From positions 16,608-80,607 of the forward strand of contig CAKZTD010000136.1 in the NCBI GenBank assembly GCA_937921595.1: a DNA stretch of 64,000 nucleotides, written 5' to 3'. The DNA is from an uncultured Saprospiraceae bacterium. Lineage in GTDB: Bacteria; Bacteroidota; Bacteroidia; Chitinophagales; Saprospiraceae. Of this stretch, positions 8,547 through 14,702 are shown piece by piece. Position numbers and translations under genes: made by a program. The notes below the pieces were generated by a model, which was not told the DNA's origin, did not search any database, and was given only the letters and a program-made list of their open reading frames with translations. Position 1 is the stretch's first letter. Every line of letters begins with the position of its first letter.

Positions 8547-9419
8547 TTATAAATGTCTTTCTGCATGATAAGAAGATCTCACCAAAGGTCCACTTTCTAC
8601 ATAATCAAAACCTTTTTTCATACCGACTTCTTTATACTCTGCAAATTTATCAGGATGCACGTAAGAATCTACTTCGAGGTGCATTTTTGTAGGTTGTAAA
8701 TACTGACCAATGGTCAATACATCACAGCCATGTTCTACCAAATGATCCATCGTTTCAAAAACCTGCTCATCGGTTTCGCCAAGGCCAACCATGATTCCTG
8801 TCTTTGTTCTTTTTCCGAAATTTTTAATCCTTTGAATCTGCTCTAAGCTTCGCGAGTATCTCGCTTGAGGGCGAACCTTGCGGTAAAGCTTTTCAACCGT
8901 TTCCATATTATGAGAAACAACTTCTTGTCCACCACTGATCATTCTTTCCAATGCTTCCCAATTTCCTCTAGTATCCGGAATCAATGTTTCTATTGTCGTG
9001 TTTGGAGACATCTCTTTTACTGATCTAACCGTTTGATACCAAATCTCTGCACCTCGATCTTTTAATTCATCTCGGTTAACAGAAGTAAGGACTGCATGCT
9101 TAACCTGCATCAATTTAATCGCTTCTGCTACTCTTCTTGGTTCATCCTCATCATACTCTGGCGGCCTTCCTGTCTTGACTGCGCAAAAAGAACAAGAACG
9201 AGTACAAGTATTTCCAAGGATCATGAAAGTCGCAGTTCCTGCACCCCAGCATTCTCCCATATTTGGGCAATTTCCACTTTGACAAATCGTATGCAATTTG
9301 TACTCATCAACGAGTTTACGAACTTTCTTAAATTCTTCTCCAATTGGGAGTTTTACTCGAAGCCAATCCGGCTTACGGCGCCTCGGTTCTTTCTTCTCAA
9401 CTATCGGTAGTTCAAACAT
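8547..9419 (-). CDS. lipA: Lipoyl synthase
   Basis: LipA is a radical-SAM enzyme that inserts two sulfurs into protein-bound octanoate to make the lipoyl cofactor of 2-oxoacid dehydrogenases. The 290-residue product carries both cluster motifs: C46-x4-C51-x5-C57 (auxiliary cluster, [12 protein letters not shown]) and C72-x3-C76-x2-C79 (radical-SAM cluster, CTRSCSFC). The conserved late serine is in the C-terminal [10 protein letters not shown] segment. Length is typical. The window also encodes SucA, whose complex needs lipoyl groups, but the genes are far apart. Confidence 0.96.
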
Positions 9420-9523
9420 GATATTTTATTTTATACTCAAAAACACAGTGATTTATAAAAACAAGTGTTTTCAATTAACAAAGTAACTCCAAATAGGTTT
9501 TATGGAAAAAATGGAAAAATTAA

Positions 9524-10330
9524 TTACCAACGCTTTCCTAACTGCAAAGTTAAGTAAAGATTGATAAAATAAGGCCGGTTTTCTGCAGATCCGTCACGAT
9601 CGACCATAATTGGCACTTCTTTGAAAAAAGCATCAACCATGATTCCTGCTTCGAAAGCTTTGACAAACTCATCAAATGCACCCCAATCGAAATGGACGCT
9701 GAATTTACCATGAATGCCAGGGATAGGTTTTATTTCTTTGAATCCTTTGCTGAAGCCTGAAGCTCCATAGATTCTATTGATGTCTGTAAAGCTGTCGTAA
9801 TTTGTGCCGTCATATCTTTCGCTCACAAGGTAGATGTCGTTGGTCGAACCATCTTGCTGTCTCCAAAAGTCTAGGTAATATGGTTTTTGCAATCCTAAAG
9901 TTGGACCTGCTTCGTAGCTAATTCCTACTGCTACACCTTTCCTTTTTGCTTTTTCAGAATAATATCTTTTGACACCAATTCCTGCACGAATAGCATAGAG
10001 GTTATTTTGTTTTCCAAATACGAAGGATTTAGAAGTTCTTCCGCTAAATTGACTCGGATAATCAAAACTATGTCGGAATTCTTTCGGGTGTTTAAGTTCA
10101 CCTACTTCAATGTGATAATATTTCGTTTTATAATAAGACTGAATTTTTCCAATATTAGCAGCAACGGCCCAGCCATTGGTGTGTAATCTAAGGTCAAAGG
10201 ATAATTCTTTGTCATAAACAATACCTTTGCTTTCCTCAGCAAATTGCTTAGGTTGAAATGTCCCATTCTGAGCAAATGTAACACCTGAAAATAGGCAGAT
10301 AAAAAGGAAAAATGTTAGAGTCCTGTACAT
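9524..10330 (-). CDS. Exported hypothetical protein, probable outer-membrane barrel
   Basis: The 268-residue product begins with a signal peptide (hydrophobic residues 4-18, cleavage near TFA-Q). The mature part has alternating aromatic strands such as WAVAANIGKIQSYYKTKYYHIEVG and ends in INLYLTLQLGKRW, resembling the last strand of an outer-membrane barrel. I do not recognise a family. It precedes lipA on the same strand with a 104-bp gap, so the two may be transcribed separately. Confidence 0.6.
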   Translation of the reverse strand: MYRTLTFFLFICLFSGVTFAQNGTFQPKQFAEESKGIVYDKELSFDLRLHTNGWAVAANIGKIQSYYKTKYYHIEVGELKHPKEFRHSFDYPSQFSGRTSKSFVFGKQNNLYAIRAGIGVKRYYSEKAKRKGVAVGISYEAGPTLGLQKPYYLDFWRQQDGSTNDIYLVSERYDGTNYDSFTDINRIYGASGFSKGFKEIKPIPGIHGKFSVHFDWGAFDEFVKAFEAGIMVDAFFKEVPIMVDRDGSAENRPYFINLYLTLQLGKRW

Positions 10331-10668: not shown

Positions 10669-11775
10669 TTAGACCATATATTCCAAATCAAAGCTTACCG
10701 TAATACTAAGTTCTTTTGGGTTTTTACTCACATCAACACTGCTTTTTTGGAGATCGAGTAATTGTTTTACGATCGATAAGCGGTAGATCATAGTAGAGTA
10801 GTCTTGTTCAGACAAGAAGGTTGTCTTTTTATTCAGAAGTTCAACAACTTGAAAGTTGATGATTAATGTATTTTCCTTTTTAGAGGATTGATTGATTTTG
10901 ATTTCAAAGGTTGATTCTGGATGCAAGCTAACCGCATTTCCTACAATGCCCCAAAGCGTCTGTTTTAAATAAAGATAATTTCCCTTTAATGATTTTGGAA
11001 TGTTTTCATCAATCGTGAAAGTTAACTTAGTTTGGGTATTTTTTTTACGAATTAAATCCTTTGTTTCATTACAAAGGTCGGTAAGGAAGAAATCTTGATT
11101 TGCAAAATTCGGCATATTAGAAATATTAGTCGTTTCTAATTCGTCGAGTATCAGATTAAGTTGCTTGAGTGTAACTCTTAATTGTTGGGTATATTTACTG
11201 TCTTTATTTTCTAAAGCTCCAGATAATAAATAAGTGATGCCGTCAAGCGCATTAATTGGAGCAAGTAAAGCAGATTTTATTTTATTGAAGTAAGTCAGTT
11301 GGAGATGATCCAGACTTTCGATAATTATATTTTGCTGAATATTGATGTCTTCAATATTTTTAAAAAGCTGATGCCTTCTTTCCAAAGTTTCGCGATGAAT
11401 TTCAAGTTCGTTTTTTCTTTGTTGGAACTGTTTGAAATCTTCATAAAGGTCGGTGTAGTCATAGACACACCAGAGTAATAACTCTTCTTTATCAATGATG
11501 ATTTTTGAAAAACTAAAATCGTAAGTACCTGGAAGTTGTGGAATAGGCGTTTCCATTTTATTAAAAGAGATGTTGGATTGGTTAGAAGCCGTTTCCCAGA
11601 TATTGGTAAAAATACTCTCTAGGAAAGGAAACCAATCAATTACAGGCTTATCTTTTAAAGGAATGGTATCGAATATGGAGTCACAACTTGAGACAATTAC
11701 TGCCTGTTTGTTTAACAGTATCAATTGGCTAAATTTGGAACGATGTCTAAGCTGAAATTCAAGAAGTTGTTGCAT
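10669..11775 (-). CDS. Degenerate histidine-kinase-like protein of the GTPase cluster
   Basis: The 368-residue soluble protein has a PAS-like N-terminus (about 1-135), which ends in a typical PAS/coil junction, LLLWCVYDYTDLYEDFKQF. A coiled coil follows, then a DHp-like helix pair near 170-210. The usual S-H-[ED]-L-[RK]-[TA]-P-L motif is replaced by KSALLAPINALDG, which has no histidine. An HATPase-like part (about 235-368) keeps an N-box-like helix (YLKQTLWGIVGNAVS) but I cannot see DxGxG or the later glycine boxes. It is therefore probably a pseudokinase or signal-binding protein. Its start codon overlaps the end of the GTPase gene by 1 nt, so the two are translationally coupled. Confidence 0.65.
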   Translation of the reverse strand: MQQLLEFQLRHRSKFSQLILLNKQAVIVSSCDSIFDTIPLKDKPVIDWFPFLESIFTNIWETASNQSNISFNKMETPIPQLPGTYDFSFSKIIIDKEELLLWCVYDYTDLYEDFKQFQQRKNELEIHRETLERRHQLFKNIEDINIQQNIIIESLDHLQLTYFNKIKSALLAPINALDGITYLLSGALENKDSKYTQQLRVTLKQLNLILDELETTNISNMPNFANQDFFLTDLCNETKDLIRKKNTQTKLTFTIDENIPKSLKGNYLYLKQTLWGIVGNAVSLHPESTFEIKINQSSKKENTLIINFQVVELLNKKTTFLSEQDYSTMIYRLSIVKQLLDLQKSSVDVSKNPKELSITVSFDLEYMV

Positions 11776-12260
11776 TATTCAAGGAATGCTTTGCCTAGGC
11801 TCAAAAATAAATCTTCAACGTTTTCTCCGGTTTTAGCACTGGTAATAATATCCCAGGGAGTCGTTAAAATCGCTTTTACTTCTTCTATTTTTTCAGGAGT
11901 AAGAAGATCGCATTTATTTCCTACCACTTTGACAATAGCATCATTGGCCATGCCATTGAGGTATTCGATATCACTTGAAATATTTTTGTAAGTAGAAGGT
12001 CTGGTGAGATCAAAAATATAGATAATGCCACTGGATCCAAGAAAATAAGAATTCGGAATTTTATCCTGAGAAACCTCTCCTGCAATATCCCAAAGTAAGA
12101 GTGAAACTTCTTCTCCTTCTATTTCAATGGATTTTTTGTTGACTTTTACACCAATAGTCGTCAAATACTTATCATCAAATTTATTGTAGATAAATTTATT
12201 GAAAAGAGATGTTTTTCCAACGCCGAAACTTCCAGTAAGGATAATCTTTTTACTAATCAT
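11775..12260 (-). CDS. Ras/Rab-like small GTPase
   Basis: The 161-residue product is a single G domain. The P-loop is G10-SFGVG-K16-T17, switch I includes LTTIGVKV with the conserved Thr, and G3 reads LLLWDIAGEVSQD. G4 is GNKCDL and G5 TSAKTG. The position equivalent to Ras Gln61 is Glu (DIAGE), so intrinsic hydrolysis may be slow or depend on a partner. No lipidation motif is visible. Bacterial relatives such as MglA control polarity and motility together with longin/roadblock partners. The adjacent gene at 12266, only 5 bp upstream, encodes such a candidate partner. Function here is inferred only from family and context. Confidence 0.88.
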   Translation of the reverse strand: MISKKIILTGSFGVGKTSLFNKFIYNKFDDKYLTTIGVKVNKKSIEIEGEEVSLLLWDIAGEVSQDKIPNSYFLGSSGIIYIFDLTRPSTYKNISSDIEYLNGMANDAIVKVVGNKCDLLTPEKIEEVKAILTTPWDIITSAKTGENVEDLFLSLGKAFLE

Positions 12261-12265
12261 ATTGC

Positions 12266-13270
12266 TTATGCGGATTTAAGTGCTTGTTCTGTCTGAAAGA
12301 AATAATCTTTAAGTCTATCAGAAATACGGGTATTTATAGAGTCGTCAATATCTTTAGGGATGTGTTTTAATTCTAATTCTGCAAAATCATGCAGTTTAGT
12401 AGAGATTTCATCCTTTTCAGTAGCAGAAATTGATCCACTCATTGCGACTGCAATATAGTAAGAATAAAAGTTTTGAATATAGATTTTATAATTTCCATAT
12501 TCGATCATTTCTAATTCTTGTTTTTCTCTTTGAAAAGCGTCCTCAACGAAAGCTTTAATTGCGGTAAACATTCCTGCAATCACATCCTGATCCATTGTCT
12601 TTTCCATTGCGGCACTTCCTAATAATAATCCGGAGTCTCTTTGGATGACATAGACTTCTTCGATGATTGTTTCGTCAGCATCGCTCAATATTTCTTCAGT
12701 ACCTTTGCTTTTATAGCCAAATATTTTCCCAAAGAGACCTTGCTTAGAAAAGGTGCTTTTGACTTGGCTGTCAATTCTCTCCTTTAACATTTGAAATTGG
12801 TGCGTGATTGATTTTCGAATCAATTTACCAAGTACTGGGGTGATGACATTTAGAATTTCTTCTTGAGAATCTTTAAGTTTTCGTTCAATTAGCTTATTGA
12901 CGGCAACTTTAAACTCTTTCGGATAATTCTGTTTAAGTAATTCAATATGATCTTCGACGATCGGAGATACTTTTTCAGCAAGCTGATCTTTGGTTTGAAT
13001 CAAAGCATTGAGACCAGCTAAATCAGCTTCCGTTTTTTGGAGCCGATCCTCCATCATACCTTTTACTATAGAACGAAATTCTTCTGGATAATTTTGACGA
13101 AATGTTTGAAGATGATCCTGAACAATAGGCGAAACTCTCTCAGATAGTAAATCATAGCTATCTAAAATATCACGAACCTCCTGGATTTTGGTGCGATCTC
13201 CAGTCAGTAATATCTCTTGAAGCTGTTCCATCAAGAGTTTGTCTTTCTGATTGTTACTAATAGAATTCAT
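12266..13270 (-). CDS. Tandem-repeat plus longin/roadblock-like partner of the small GTPase
   Basis: The 334-residue protein has two parts. Residues about 35-135 contain two copies of a 40-50-residue module with the shared core SPIV-x-DH followed by QNYP[EK]EF. The C-terminal half (about 205-310) reads VYVIQRDSGLLLGS, then DVIAGMFTAIKAFVEDAF, then NYKIYIQNFYSYYIAVAMSG. That order of a short strand hairpin, long helix and two strands resembles longin/roadblock domains, which bind small GTPases. A long amphipathic helix between them (about 140-190) may mediate oligomers. No signal peptide is present. The domain call is from pattern only. Confidence 0.6.
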   Translation of the reverse strand: MNSISNNQKDKLLMEQLQEILLTGDRTKIQEVRDILDSYDLLSERVSPIVQDHLQTFRQNYPEEFRSIVKGMMEDRLQKTEADLAGLNALIQTKDQLAEKVSPIVEDHIELLKQNYPKEFKVAVNKLIERKLKDSQEEILNVITPVLGKLIRKSITHQFQMLKERIDSQVKSTFSKQGLFGKIFGYKSKGTEEILSDADETIIEEVYVIQRDSGLLLGSAAMEKTMDQDVIAGMFTAIKAFVEDAFQREKQELEMIEYGNYKIYIQNFYSYYIAVAMSGSISATEKDEISTKLHDFAELELKHIPKDIDDSINTRISDRLKDYFFQTEQALKSA

Positions 13271-13293
13271 GATAAAAGAATTGAGGTGAACAA

Positions 13294-13662
13294 TTATTCT
13301 CCCATCAATTGTTTGCTTACTTTATCTAGCATTTTTCCAAGTCGCATTTTATCGTCTTTACTAACTTTATCAATCCGGTTGTTCAATTTCTCGACATTAG
13401 AAATAAGCTGCTTTTCAATATCTTCAAATTTCATGGTATGTTCTTTATCCATGCTTGAGAAAGATTTTTGAGTAGCAGAATCCAGTTCTGTGATTTTAGA
13501 AGAAAGCTCTTTTTTTAAATCAGCAATCTGTTCTTGAATTGTATTAAATCTAGCTTCGAAATCAGTAATTTGGTCACCCATCAAGATGTTACGGATCATG
13601 CCGATATCACCAAGATTTAAGCCATTGCCTTTATCGTTGTTATTGCCATTGCTATTTGCCAT
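13294..13662 (-). CDS. Small coiled-coil protein, first gene of the GTPase cluster
   Basis: The 122-residue product begins with an Asn/Gly-rich, probably disordered tail (NSNGNNNDKGNG). It continues with DIGMIRNILMGDQ and then a long heptad-patterned helix over about 35-120 (FNTIQEQIADLKKEL, NVEKLNNRIDKVS). No membrane segment or signal is seen. It lies 23 bp upstream of the longin-like gene on the same strand and is likely the first cistron of the four-gene unit. It resembles small scaffold or coiled-coil adaptors; the role is unknown. Confidence 0.6.
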   Translation of the reverse strand: MANSNGNNNDKGNGLNLGDIGMIRNILMGDQITDFEARFNTIQEQIADLKKELSSKITELDSATQKSFSSMDKEHTMKFEDIEKQLISNVEKLNNRIDKVSKDDKMRLGKMLDKVSKQLMGE

Positions 13663-14051: not shown

Positions 14052-14702
14052 ATGGCATTCATCTTAAATGACGAAAATTCGATTGCAAATAAATTTATTT
14101 CAGAATTAAGAGATGTAAATATTCAGGGTGATCGTATGCGATTTCGTAGAAATTTGGAAAGAATAGGAGAGGTGCTAGCCTACGAAATTAGCAAAAAATT
14201 ATCTTTTAAAGAACAAGAAGTGGAGACACCACTTGGGATTGCAAAATCAAGTCTAATCGAGGATAAGATTGTATTAGGAACTATTCTTCGAGCTGGTTTG
14301 CCAATGCATCAAGGTATGTTGAATATTTTTGATGATGCAGATAATGCGTTTATTTCTGCCTATAGAATGCACCATAAGGATGGTACTTTTGAAATTAAAG
14401 TGGAATATGTGTCTTGCCCTTCTTTGGATGGATGCATATTGATTCTTTGCGATCCAATGCTTGCAACTGGAGCGTCAATTGATTTGACTATAAAAGCACT
14501 TGCTGAGTACGGAAATCCTAAAGAAATACATGTGGCTACGGCGATTGCTTCGACTTATGGCCTTAATTACATTCGTCGCTTGCATCCGGAGGTCAATCTA
14601 TGGTTAGGAGCGCAAGATGATGAGTTGACTGCACGTTCTTATATTGTTCCTGGATTAGGAGATGCAGGAGATTTATCCTTTGGAAGTAAAGTTCAGGAGT
14701 AA
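14052..14702 (+). CDS. upp: Uracil phosphoribosyltransferase
   Basis: Upp makes UMP from uracil and PRPP in pyrimidine salvage. The 216-residue protein has the family landmarks GTILRAGLPMHQGM near 77-90 and the PRPP-binding loop LCDPMLATGASID near 134-146. The uracil-binding C-terminal part includes WLGAQDDELT and the closing IVPGLGDAGDLSFG. Length matches the usual 208-217. It appears to be transcribed alone or with the symporter 119 bp downstream. Confidence 0.95.
   Translation: MAFILNDENSIANKFISELRDVNIQGDRMRFRRNLERIGEVLAYEISKKLSFKEQEVETPLGIAKSSLIEDKIVLGTILRAGLPMHQGMLNIFDDADNAFISAYRMHHKDGTFEIKVEYVSCPSLDGCILILCDPMLATGASIDLTIKALAEYGNPKEIHVATAIASTYGLNYIRRLHPEVNLWLGAQDDELTARSYIVPGLGDAGDLSFGSKVQE

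What the first reader, a model, noticed from the sequence alone, without database searches (positions are those of the whole stretch)
10669..13662. Four-gene Ras-like GTPase cluster with a longin-like partner and a pseudokinase
Four tightly packed minus-strand genes encode a coiled-coil protein, a protein with twin SPIV-x-DH modules plus a longin/roadblock-like domain, a single-domain Ras/Rab-like GTPase, and a PAS/DHp/HATPase-like protein without the phospho-histidine. The GTPase has Glu in place of Ras Gln61, hinting at partner-controlled hydrolysis. Gene gaps are 23 bp, 5 bp and a 1-nt overlap, so the four are probably one complex. In MglA/MglB, a GTPase and roadblock GAP set cell polarity. 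Here the GAP-like partner carries a novel N-terminal duplication and the switch is linked to a kinase-like sensor. I know of no characterised system with this set, though the claim of novelty is unproven.
Basis: partly seen in the sequence, partly recalled or inferred. Interest (0 to 1): 0.75.

Follow-up and report, generated by a model that had tools for sequence, protein, structure and literature searches.

The report
Bacterial Rab-like GTPase switch operon
Four neighbouring genes in a Bacteroidota bacterium encode a Ras/Rab-like molecular switch with its partner proteins; the gene set was described by computer analysis in 2014, but this lineage has a stripped-down form with a kinase-like partner that has lost its catalytic residues and a partner domain that resembles the longin domains that handle Rab switches in our own cells.

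Summary
The four minus-strand genes are real, with the stated gaps. They fit the Group 1 Rup system, described computationally in 2014 (PMC4316618): a Ras/Rab-like GTPase without the catalytic Gln, a coiled-coil protein, an unknown-domain protein often ending in OmpA, and an output protein whose N-terminal region holds an invariant Gln. Mesorhizobium and Nostoc plasmids carry the same order. So the set is not unknown; I found no experimental study. Different here: no OmpA or membrane helix; a kinase-like output without phospho-His or ATP boxes, only its N-terminal domain remaining in 25 of 63 related loci; Glu at Ras position 61 in 64 of 64; a twin SPIV module in 3 of 34 relatives. The unknown domain resembles eukaryotic longin domains by weak, recurrent matches; its structure prediction failed, so the fold is unproven. 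Likely mechanism: a cytoplasmic GTPase switch on a longin-like platform, with a PAS-like, Gln-bearing adaptor that may complete the GTPase site. Verdict: new variant of a known kind.

The parts
13294..13662 (-). coiled-coil protein, 122 aa, first gene
   Evidence: ORF; homologue upstream of the longin-like gene in 61 of 63 loci; in both misses (L072, L074) the contig ends within 21 and 181 bases of the longin-like gene (coordinates)
12266..13270 (-). longin-like partner protein, 334 aa
   Evidence: ORF; homologue of the OmpA-type proteins of the Nostoc and Mesorhizobium clusters
13040..13165 (-). first SPIV-x-DH module (about residues 36-77)
   Evidence: extra copy, present in 3 of 34 relatives
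12875..13000 (-). second SPIV-x-DH module (about residues 91-132), aligned with the single copy of most relatives
12269..12670 (-). longin-like core (residues 201-334)
   Evidence: Fuz_longin_1 E 0.0009, 19.9 bits, for this segment alone, below the curated cut-off of 26.1; longin families recur over 80 homologous segments; PDB profile best hit BET5, E 0.38
11775..12260 (-). Group 1 Rup-type (Ras/Rab-like) GTPase, 161 aa; Glu62 in place of Ras Gln61
   Evidence: Pfam Ras 110.5 bits; nearest solved chains Sec4/Rab; motif counts
10669..11775 (-). degenerate histidine-kinase-like output protein, 368 aa
11371..11775 (-). its PAS-like N-terminal domain plus helix with the conserved Gln (Q119, codon 11419-11421)
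   Evidence: Q119 column: Q in 57 of 62; model PAS-like 16-106, helix 108-140
11131..11346 (-). DHp-like helices without phospho-His (about residues 144-215)
   Evidence: residues 134-170 of the model have pLDDT under 50
10678..11103 (-). HATPase-like domain without G1/G2 boxes (about residues 225-366)

Best explanation
This is a Group 1 Rup GTPase signalling operon in a soluble, reduced form. SHOWN (sequence): the four conserved components in the conserved order, the missing G3 Gln replaced by Glu, the output protein's N-terminal domain with its conserved Gln, no OmpA or membrane helix, and a kinase-like half without catalytic motifs. INFERRED: the coiled-coil and longin-like proteins form a cytoplasmic platform that binds the GTPase; the GTP-bound switch engages the PAS-like N-terminal domain of the fourth protein; Q119 on the helix after that domain may enter the GTPase site and stand in for the missing Gln, so the adaptor would be both effector and hydrolysis partner, as speculated in PMC4316618; and the kinase-like half dimerises or passes on the signal by contact with another protein rather than by phosphorylation. 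My estimate: Group 1 Rup membership about 0.9; longin fold of the partner about 0.7; Gln in trans about 0.35.
For: Component list and missing G3 Gln as described for Group 1 Rup (sections 17 and 18 read). Same order, coiled-coil / OmpA-type protein / GTPase / output, in Mesorhizobium plasmid NZ_CP021071 (annotated hypothetical, OmpA family, Rab family GTPase, cyclase) and Nostoc plasmid NZ_CP117772 (ORFs), with profile matches for the first three genes and a core alignment. GTPase adjacent 63 of 63, coiled-coil gene 61 of 63, output N-terminal domain 49 of 63. Glu at Ras-61 in 64 of 64. Gln119 column Q in 57 of 62. Of 10 fourth proteins from other loci scanned, 7 (L094, L097, L128, L129, L137, L139, Nostoc) match Pfam HisKA and HATPase_c (HisKA of L094 just under its cut-off), 2 (L130, L132) sigma-54 activator domains, 1 (Mesorhizobium) a cyclase; but of 23 full-length forms of the window's family, HATPase_c matches 3 and HisKA 1 at E 0.01. 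Window against L035, fourth protein: first 135 residues 73% identical, last 153 residues 41%.
Against: No binding or enzyme data. The structure model of the longin-like protein failed (pLDDT 37.6). The Q119 column is not strictly invariant: S 3, T 1, gap 1 of 62; S in L096 and L097, T in L094, of which L094 and L097 were scanned and match kinase domains. Nine of the 62 rows were added by hand and placed by the aligner; my output-domain profile does not match the Nostoc fourth protein and matches the Mesorhizobium one only at E 0.07. In 8 of 63 loci no fourth gene was recognised although the contig continues. 4 of 23 kinase-like rows have a His within three columns of the phospho-His place. The membership rests on the paper's text; I had neither its sequence set, its figures nor its supplement.
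Confidence: 0.6

Rival explanations
1. The Glu is the built-in catalyst: the GTPase hydrolyses GTP quickly by itself (a timer), the longin-like protein acts as an exchange factor or scaffold, and Q119 is only structural.
For: PMC2987813 mentions increased intrinsic GTPase activity of Ras p21(Q61E) (one passage). Glu is invariant in the window's family, 64 of 64. The nearest longin matches include families whose named members form Rab exchange-factor complexes: Fuz/Mon1 and Intu/Ccz1 (roles from listing abstracts) and TRAPP BET5 (passage).
Against: Glu is not kept across the wider system: Ser in Nostoc, L130 and L131, Gly in L132, Thr in L128, so a Glu catalyst would be lineage-specific. P-loop position 12 is Phe in 56 of 64; a bulky residue there blocks catalysis in eukaryotic Ras (recalled).
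Confidence: 0.25
2. An MglA/MglB-like polarity system in which the partner is a roadblock GAP.
For: Longin and roadblock domains are related (PMC3521125, passages); 3 of 80 core segments match Robl_LC7 weakly.
Against: Fuz_longin_1 (14 of 80) and Intu_longin_1 (10 of 80) match more often; no Robl_LC7 match in this genome; [quoted passage not shown] in its Table 1, 0 of 121 Rup-subclade sequences are coupled to MglB.
Confidence: 0.06
3. A decaying operon: the GTPase and longin-like core do the work and the fourth gene is a remnant on its way out.
For: Kinase half nearly unrecognisable, less conserved than the N-terminal domain, missing from the matching gene in 25 of the 49 loci with the domain, and no recognised fourth gene in 8 of 63.
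Against: The N-terminal domain stays 73% identical to L035 and keeps Q118 and Q119 in 23 of 23 full-length forms, all open frames.
Confidence: 0.2

Closest known systems
Group 1 Rup GTPase systems (Wuichet and Sogaard-Andersen 2014, PMC4316618)
   Same: GTPase without G3 Gln, coiled-coil gene, unknown-domain gene, output gene with N-terminal Gln region
   Different: Here no OmpA or membrane helix, an output protein without kinase motifs or reduced to its N-terminal domain, an extra SPIV module; the longin-like assignment of the unknown domain is proposed here (the word longin occurs 0 times in that paper's main text)
Actinobacterial conservons (CvnA-D; Mfp)
   Same: Four-gene operon with histidine kinase, small GTPase, roadblock partner (a relative of longin domains) and a fourth protein (PMC4316618 passages)
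   Different: MglA-family GTPase with MglB-type roadblock partner and a membrane-spanning kinase; works like, not a member
MglA/MglB polarity module
   Same: Small GTPase beside a partner of the longin/roadblock superfamily
   Different: Other GTPase family; no Robl_LC7 match in this genome
Eukaryotic longin-domain Rab regulators (Mon1-Ccz1, Fuzzy-Inturned, TRAPP BET5)
   Same: Longin-type domain paired with a Rab-like GTPase; weak profile matches
   Different: Homology at sub-threshold level only; no evidence of exchange activity

Membership tests
Group 1 Rup system | Small (<240 aa) Ras-superfamily GTPase with Ras-like G1-G5 motifs | tested here: met
   161 aa; Pfam Ras 110.5 bits; motifs
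Group 1 Rup system | No Gln in the G3 motif | tested here: met
   WDIAGE; Glu in 64 of 64
Group 1 Rup system | Adjacent gene for a coiled-coil cytoplasmic protein | tested here: met
   gene in 61 of 63 loci; highest 19-residue hydropathy mean 0.51. Coiled-coil nature judged from the sequence and weak matches to coiled-coil-type families; no coiled-coil predictor was run
Group 1 Rup system | Adjacent gene with the conserved unknown domain | tested here: met
   profile of the window's family matches the Nostoc and Mesorhizobium OmpA-type proteins at E 3e-42 and 1e-31; identity with the paper's unknown domain is inferred from the OmpA architecture
Group 1 Rup system | Often a membrane helix and OmpA domain on that protein ('often', not required) | tested here: not met
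   lengths 248-336 aa in 63 loci, highest 19-residue hydropathy mean 0.84 in the window protein and 1.71 among the 63; OmpA found in 5 of 5 scanned homologues from elsewhere
Group 1 Rup system | Output gene with an N-terminal region that holds an invariant Gln | tested here: met
   Q119; Q in 57 of 62 aligned. That this is the paper's Gln is inferred; its figure was not available
Group 1 Rup system | Place in the published Rup tree | not tested
   the 71 published sequences were not held; a 50-row tree with Nostoc and Mesorhizobium rows was made
Histidine kinase | Phospho-accepting His and ATP-binding G boxes | tested here: not met
   Ser168 at the His position; no DxGxG or GxGxG/L in the window protein; each is absent in 22 of 23 relatives aligned, window included
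Longin domain | Match to a longin family above its curated cut-off | tested here: not met
   best for the window 19.9 bits, cut-off 26.1
Longin domain | Longin fold | tested here: inconclusive
   AlphaFold2 with 3 rows failed, pLDDT 37.6; profile hits AP-4 sigma, BET5 and AP-1 sigma at E 0.16, 0.38 and 1.2
MglA/MglB | Roadblock (Robl_LC7) partner gene | tested here: not met
   no match in own genome; 3 of 80 core segments give weak matches
Anti-phage defence system | Match to PADLOC models | tested here: not met
   0 families at E 0.001 for 4 of 4 proteins

The most novel reading that the evidence does not exclude
Bacterial Group 1 Rup operons pair a Rab-like GTPase with a true longin-domain partner, so the Rab-longin pairing that runs eukaryotic membrane traffic already existed in bacteria as a signalling module; in Saprospiraceae it became a cytoplasmic switch whose former kinase output turned into an adaptor that supplies the catalytic Gln to the GTPase in trans.
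Probability: 0.2. Interest if true: 0.8.

Novelty: new variant of a known kind. Interest (0 to 1): 0.45.

Why it matters
The 2014 paper states that no Rup member had been characterised experimentally, and my searches listed no later experimental study by title or abstract. It also found Rab/Ran/Ras/Rho proteins very similar to Group 1 Rup. If the partner is a longin domain, these small soluble proteins give a testable bacterial counterpart of Rab-longin regulation, and a case in which an output kinase is replaced by its adaptor domain.

Tried and rejected
A shared N-terminal motif of the coiled-coil and longin-like proteins looked striking by eye but failed a profile test (2 of 77 real against 1 of 385 shuffled sequences at 5 bits or more) and a profile-profile test (Probab 2.97, lower than two of seven other segments; only 5 rows were left in that segment, so the test was weak): dropped. 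Promoter and terminator scans are at shuffle level (17 found, mean 15.9; 2 found, mean 1.6). No relative in viral contigs; no defence-model match. A first attempt to count downstream neighbours by regular expression was poor and was replaced by phmmer.

Results against the longin reading: 5 of 5 OmpA-type full-length proteins scanned gave no longin family at E 0.1; of the 6 PDB hits three are not longin (a putative membrane transport protein, hypothetical protein PH0099, an interferon-induced tetratricopeptide protein), and the other hit, which ranks first, is a tRNA synthetase; no longin match reached a curated cut-off for the window protein.

Foldseek against 'pdb' was not run; only the VIA-align second look on the fourth protein was. 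It mainly covers residues 142-367, so the PAS-like part is barely tested. Whether loci with the N-terminal domain alone encode a separate kinase nearby was not tested.
Full report
WHAT IS THERE. The four genes exist as described: 13294-13662, 12266-13270, 11775-12260 and 10669-11775, all minus strand, gaps 23 bp, 5 bp and a 1-nt overlap. By position they are read in the order coiled-coil, longin-like, GTPase, kinase-like; a uracil phosphoribosyltransferase gene (Pfam UPRTase) lies divergently upstream at 14052-14702. The genome (8.0 Mb, 465 contigs) is close to Saprospiraceae MAGs: the better of two named relatives found is 68% identical in the 334-aa protein.

THE GTPASE. Pfam Ras 110.5 bits; nearest solved chains Sec4, Rab14 and Rab1. 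P-loop GSFGVGKT, switch WDIAGE, NKCD, SAK. In 64 sequences (window plus 63 loci) the G3 Asp is kept in 64 of 64, Glu stands at the Ras-61 place in 64 of 64, and Phe at the Ras-12 place in 56 of 64. In the wider set this residue varies: Ser in Nostoc, L130 and L131, Gly in L132, Thr in L128, Glu in Mesorhizobium and L129; 9 of the 25 GTPases outside the 63 loci (L098-L111, L128-L132, L136-L141) were not read by my pattern, and in L133-L135 no GTPase was found in the stretch fetched. In L137-L139 and L141 the best GTPase lies on the opposite strand from the longin-like gene, so the tight order is not universal.

THE SET IS KNOWN. PMC4316618 (passages; sections 17 and 18 read) defines Rup GTPases and says that Group 1 Rup genes sit with three conserved genes: a coiled-coil cytoplasmic protein, a protein with an unknown domain often followed by a membrane helix and OmpA, and a signalling output protein with an N-terminal region holding an invariant Gln. 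The authors suggest that the missing G3 Gln is given in trans and compare the system with the conservon. Two named plasmids show the full order: Mesorhizobium sp. WSM1497 (hypothetical, OmpA family, Rab family GTPase, cyclase) and Nostoc sp. UHCC 0926 (coiled-coil-like, 763-aa OmpA-type, GTPase, 822-aa hybrid kinase). Profiles of the window's family match the first three genes in both records.

CONSERVATION. Of 199 family genomes, 64 encode the longin-like protein (E 0.001) and 71 a GTPase at E 1e-10 or better, own genome included; by the two lists all 64 are among the 71. In the 63 loci fetched outside the window the GTPase is adjacent in 63 of 63, the coiled-coil gene in 61 of 63 and the output N-terminal domain in 49 of 63. 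Of the 14 others, one (L059) ends 90 bases after the GTPase, five (L092, L093, L094, L096, L097) have a 325-502-aa gene there that my profile does not reach at E 0.01, and eight show no recognised fourth gene. Seven genomes have a GTPase match but no longin-like match. Twelve GTPase places without a longin-like gene (six from those genomes, six extra copies) were fetched, and the profile found no longin-like gene in 12 of 12; in L107 the GTPase starts 58 bases from the contig end, so nothing can be said there. G093, whose GTPase match lies in a 1175-aa frame, was not fetched. Of 395 phylum genomes 14 match, own included; outside the family two loci hold short forms (L128, L129) and twelve hold 589-636-aa forms, with OmpA in 3 of 3 of these scanned.

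THE LONGIN-LIKE PARTNER. The twin SPIV-x-DH modules are in 3 of 34 aligned relatives, window, L035 and L036, all of one genus; L037 of that genus has one (kinship). The C-terminal core is the conserved part. Longin families recur: on 34 full-length rows Intu_longin_1 4, Fuz_longin_1 3, Clat_adaptor_s 2; on 80 core segments Fuz_longin_1 14, Intu_longin_1 10, Robl_LC7 3, Clat_adaptor_s 2, the most frequent unrelated family 3 (E 0.1). A profile of the 80 cores has TRAPP BET5 as its best solved-structure hit (E 0.38) and AP-1 sigma at E 1.2, 3 of 6 hits being longin folds; the 34-row profile has AP-4 sigma at E 0.16, 1 of 2, behind a tRNA synthetase at E 0.11. That sigma subunits are longin folds is recalled; BET5 as longin is stated in PMC10933270 (passage). 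Each single match is below threshold; the recurrence is the evidence. Structure prediction failed.

HOW IT MAY WORK. In the window's family the GTPase, longin-like core and coiled-coil protein are kept most strictly; the N-terminal domain of the output protein comes next; the membrane anchor and the catalytic output are the parts lost here. I read this as a GTPase switch on a cytoplasmic platform that talks to a PAS-like adaptor. Whether the adaptor gives its Gln to the GTPase, or Glu62 itself works as in Ras Q61E (PMC2987813, one passage), is open. Longin and roadblock domains both bind small GTPases (PMC3521125, passages), so binding is likely; GAP or exchange activity cannot be told from sequence.

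NOVELTY. New variant of a known kind. In the library, searches for Rup with OmpA (1 paper, PMC4316618), Saprospiraceae with small GTPase, Rup names (16 listed), OmpA with GTPase, longin and cyanobacteria, Wuichet with longin and bacterial longin phrases listed no paper that, by title and abstract, assigns a longin domain to Rup systems or tests one; I opened only passages of PMC4316618, PMC3521125, PMC2987813, PMC10933270 and PMC4917890. The last one's Table 1 (passage) already lists 'Longin/Roadblock' as present in bacteria, so the domain superfamily in bacteria is not new.

Noticed in passing
L103, L107, L109, L110, L111; L102: Extra Rup-like GTPases without a recognised longin-like gene form a group in the tree (six rows with L102, 99/95) and in five loci stand before a 222-223-aa gene whose start looks like a response-regulator receiver (in L102 a 227-aa one lies further off); in four (L103, L109, L110, L111) a 1225-1249-aa gene that looks CheB/CheR-like lies divergently upstream. 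Judged by eye, no family search.
   Followed up: partly
L130:1402-3156, L132:1395-3179: In two Rup loci the output gene is a PAS plus sigma-54 activator, an output type that the sections I read of PMC4316618 do not name, so the switch may reach transcription directly.
   Followed up: partly
window 8547-10330 and 14052-14702: The operon sits between a upp-like gene and a gene for a secreted, barrel-like protein plus a lipA-like gene; homologues lie within the stretch fetched in 31, 22 and 17 of 63 loci. The barrel-like and lipA-like genes are also found by two GTPases without a partner (L100, L101), which suggests vertical inheritance and loss of the partner genes. The names barrel-like and lipA-like are judged by eye.
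   Followed up: partly
L086:5007-5999: A relative with an unrelated-looking N-terminal extension of the longin-like protein at the place where the window has its extra module.
   Followed up: no
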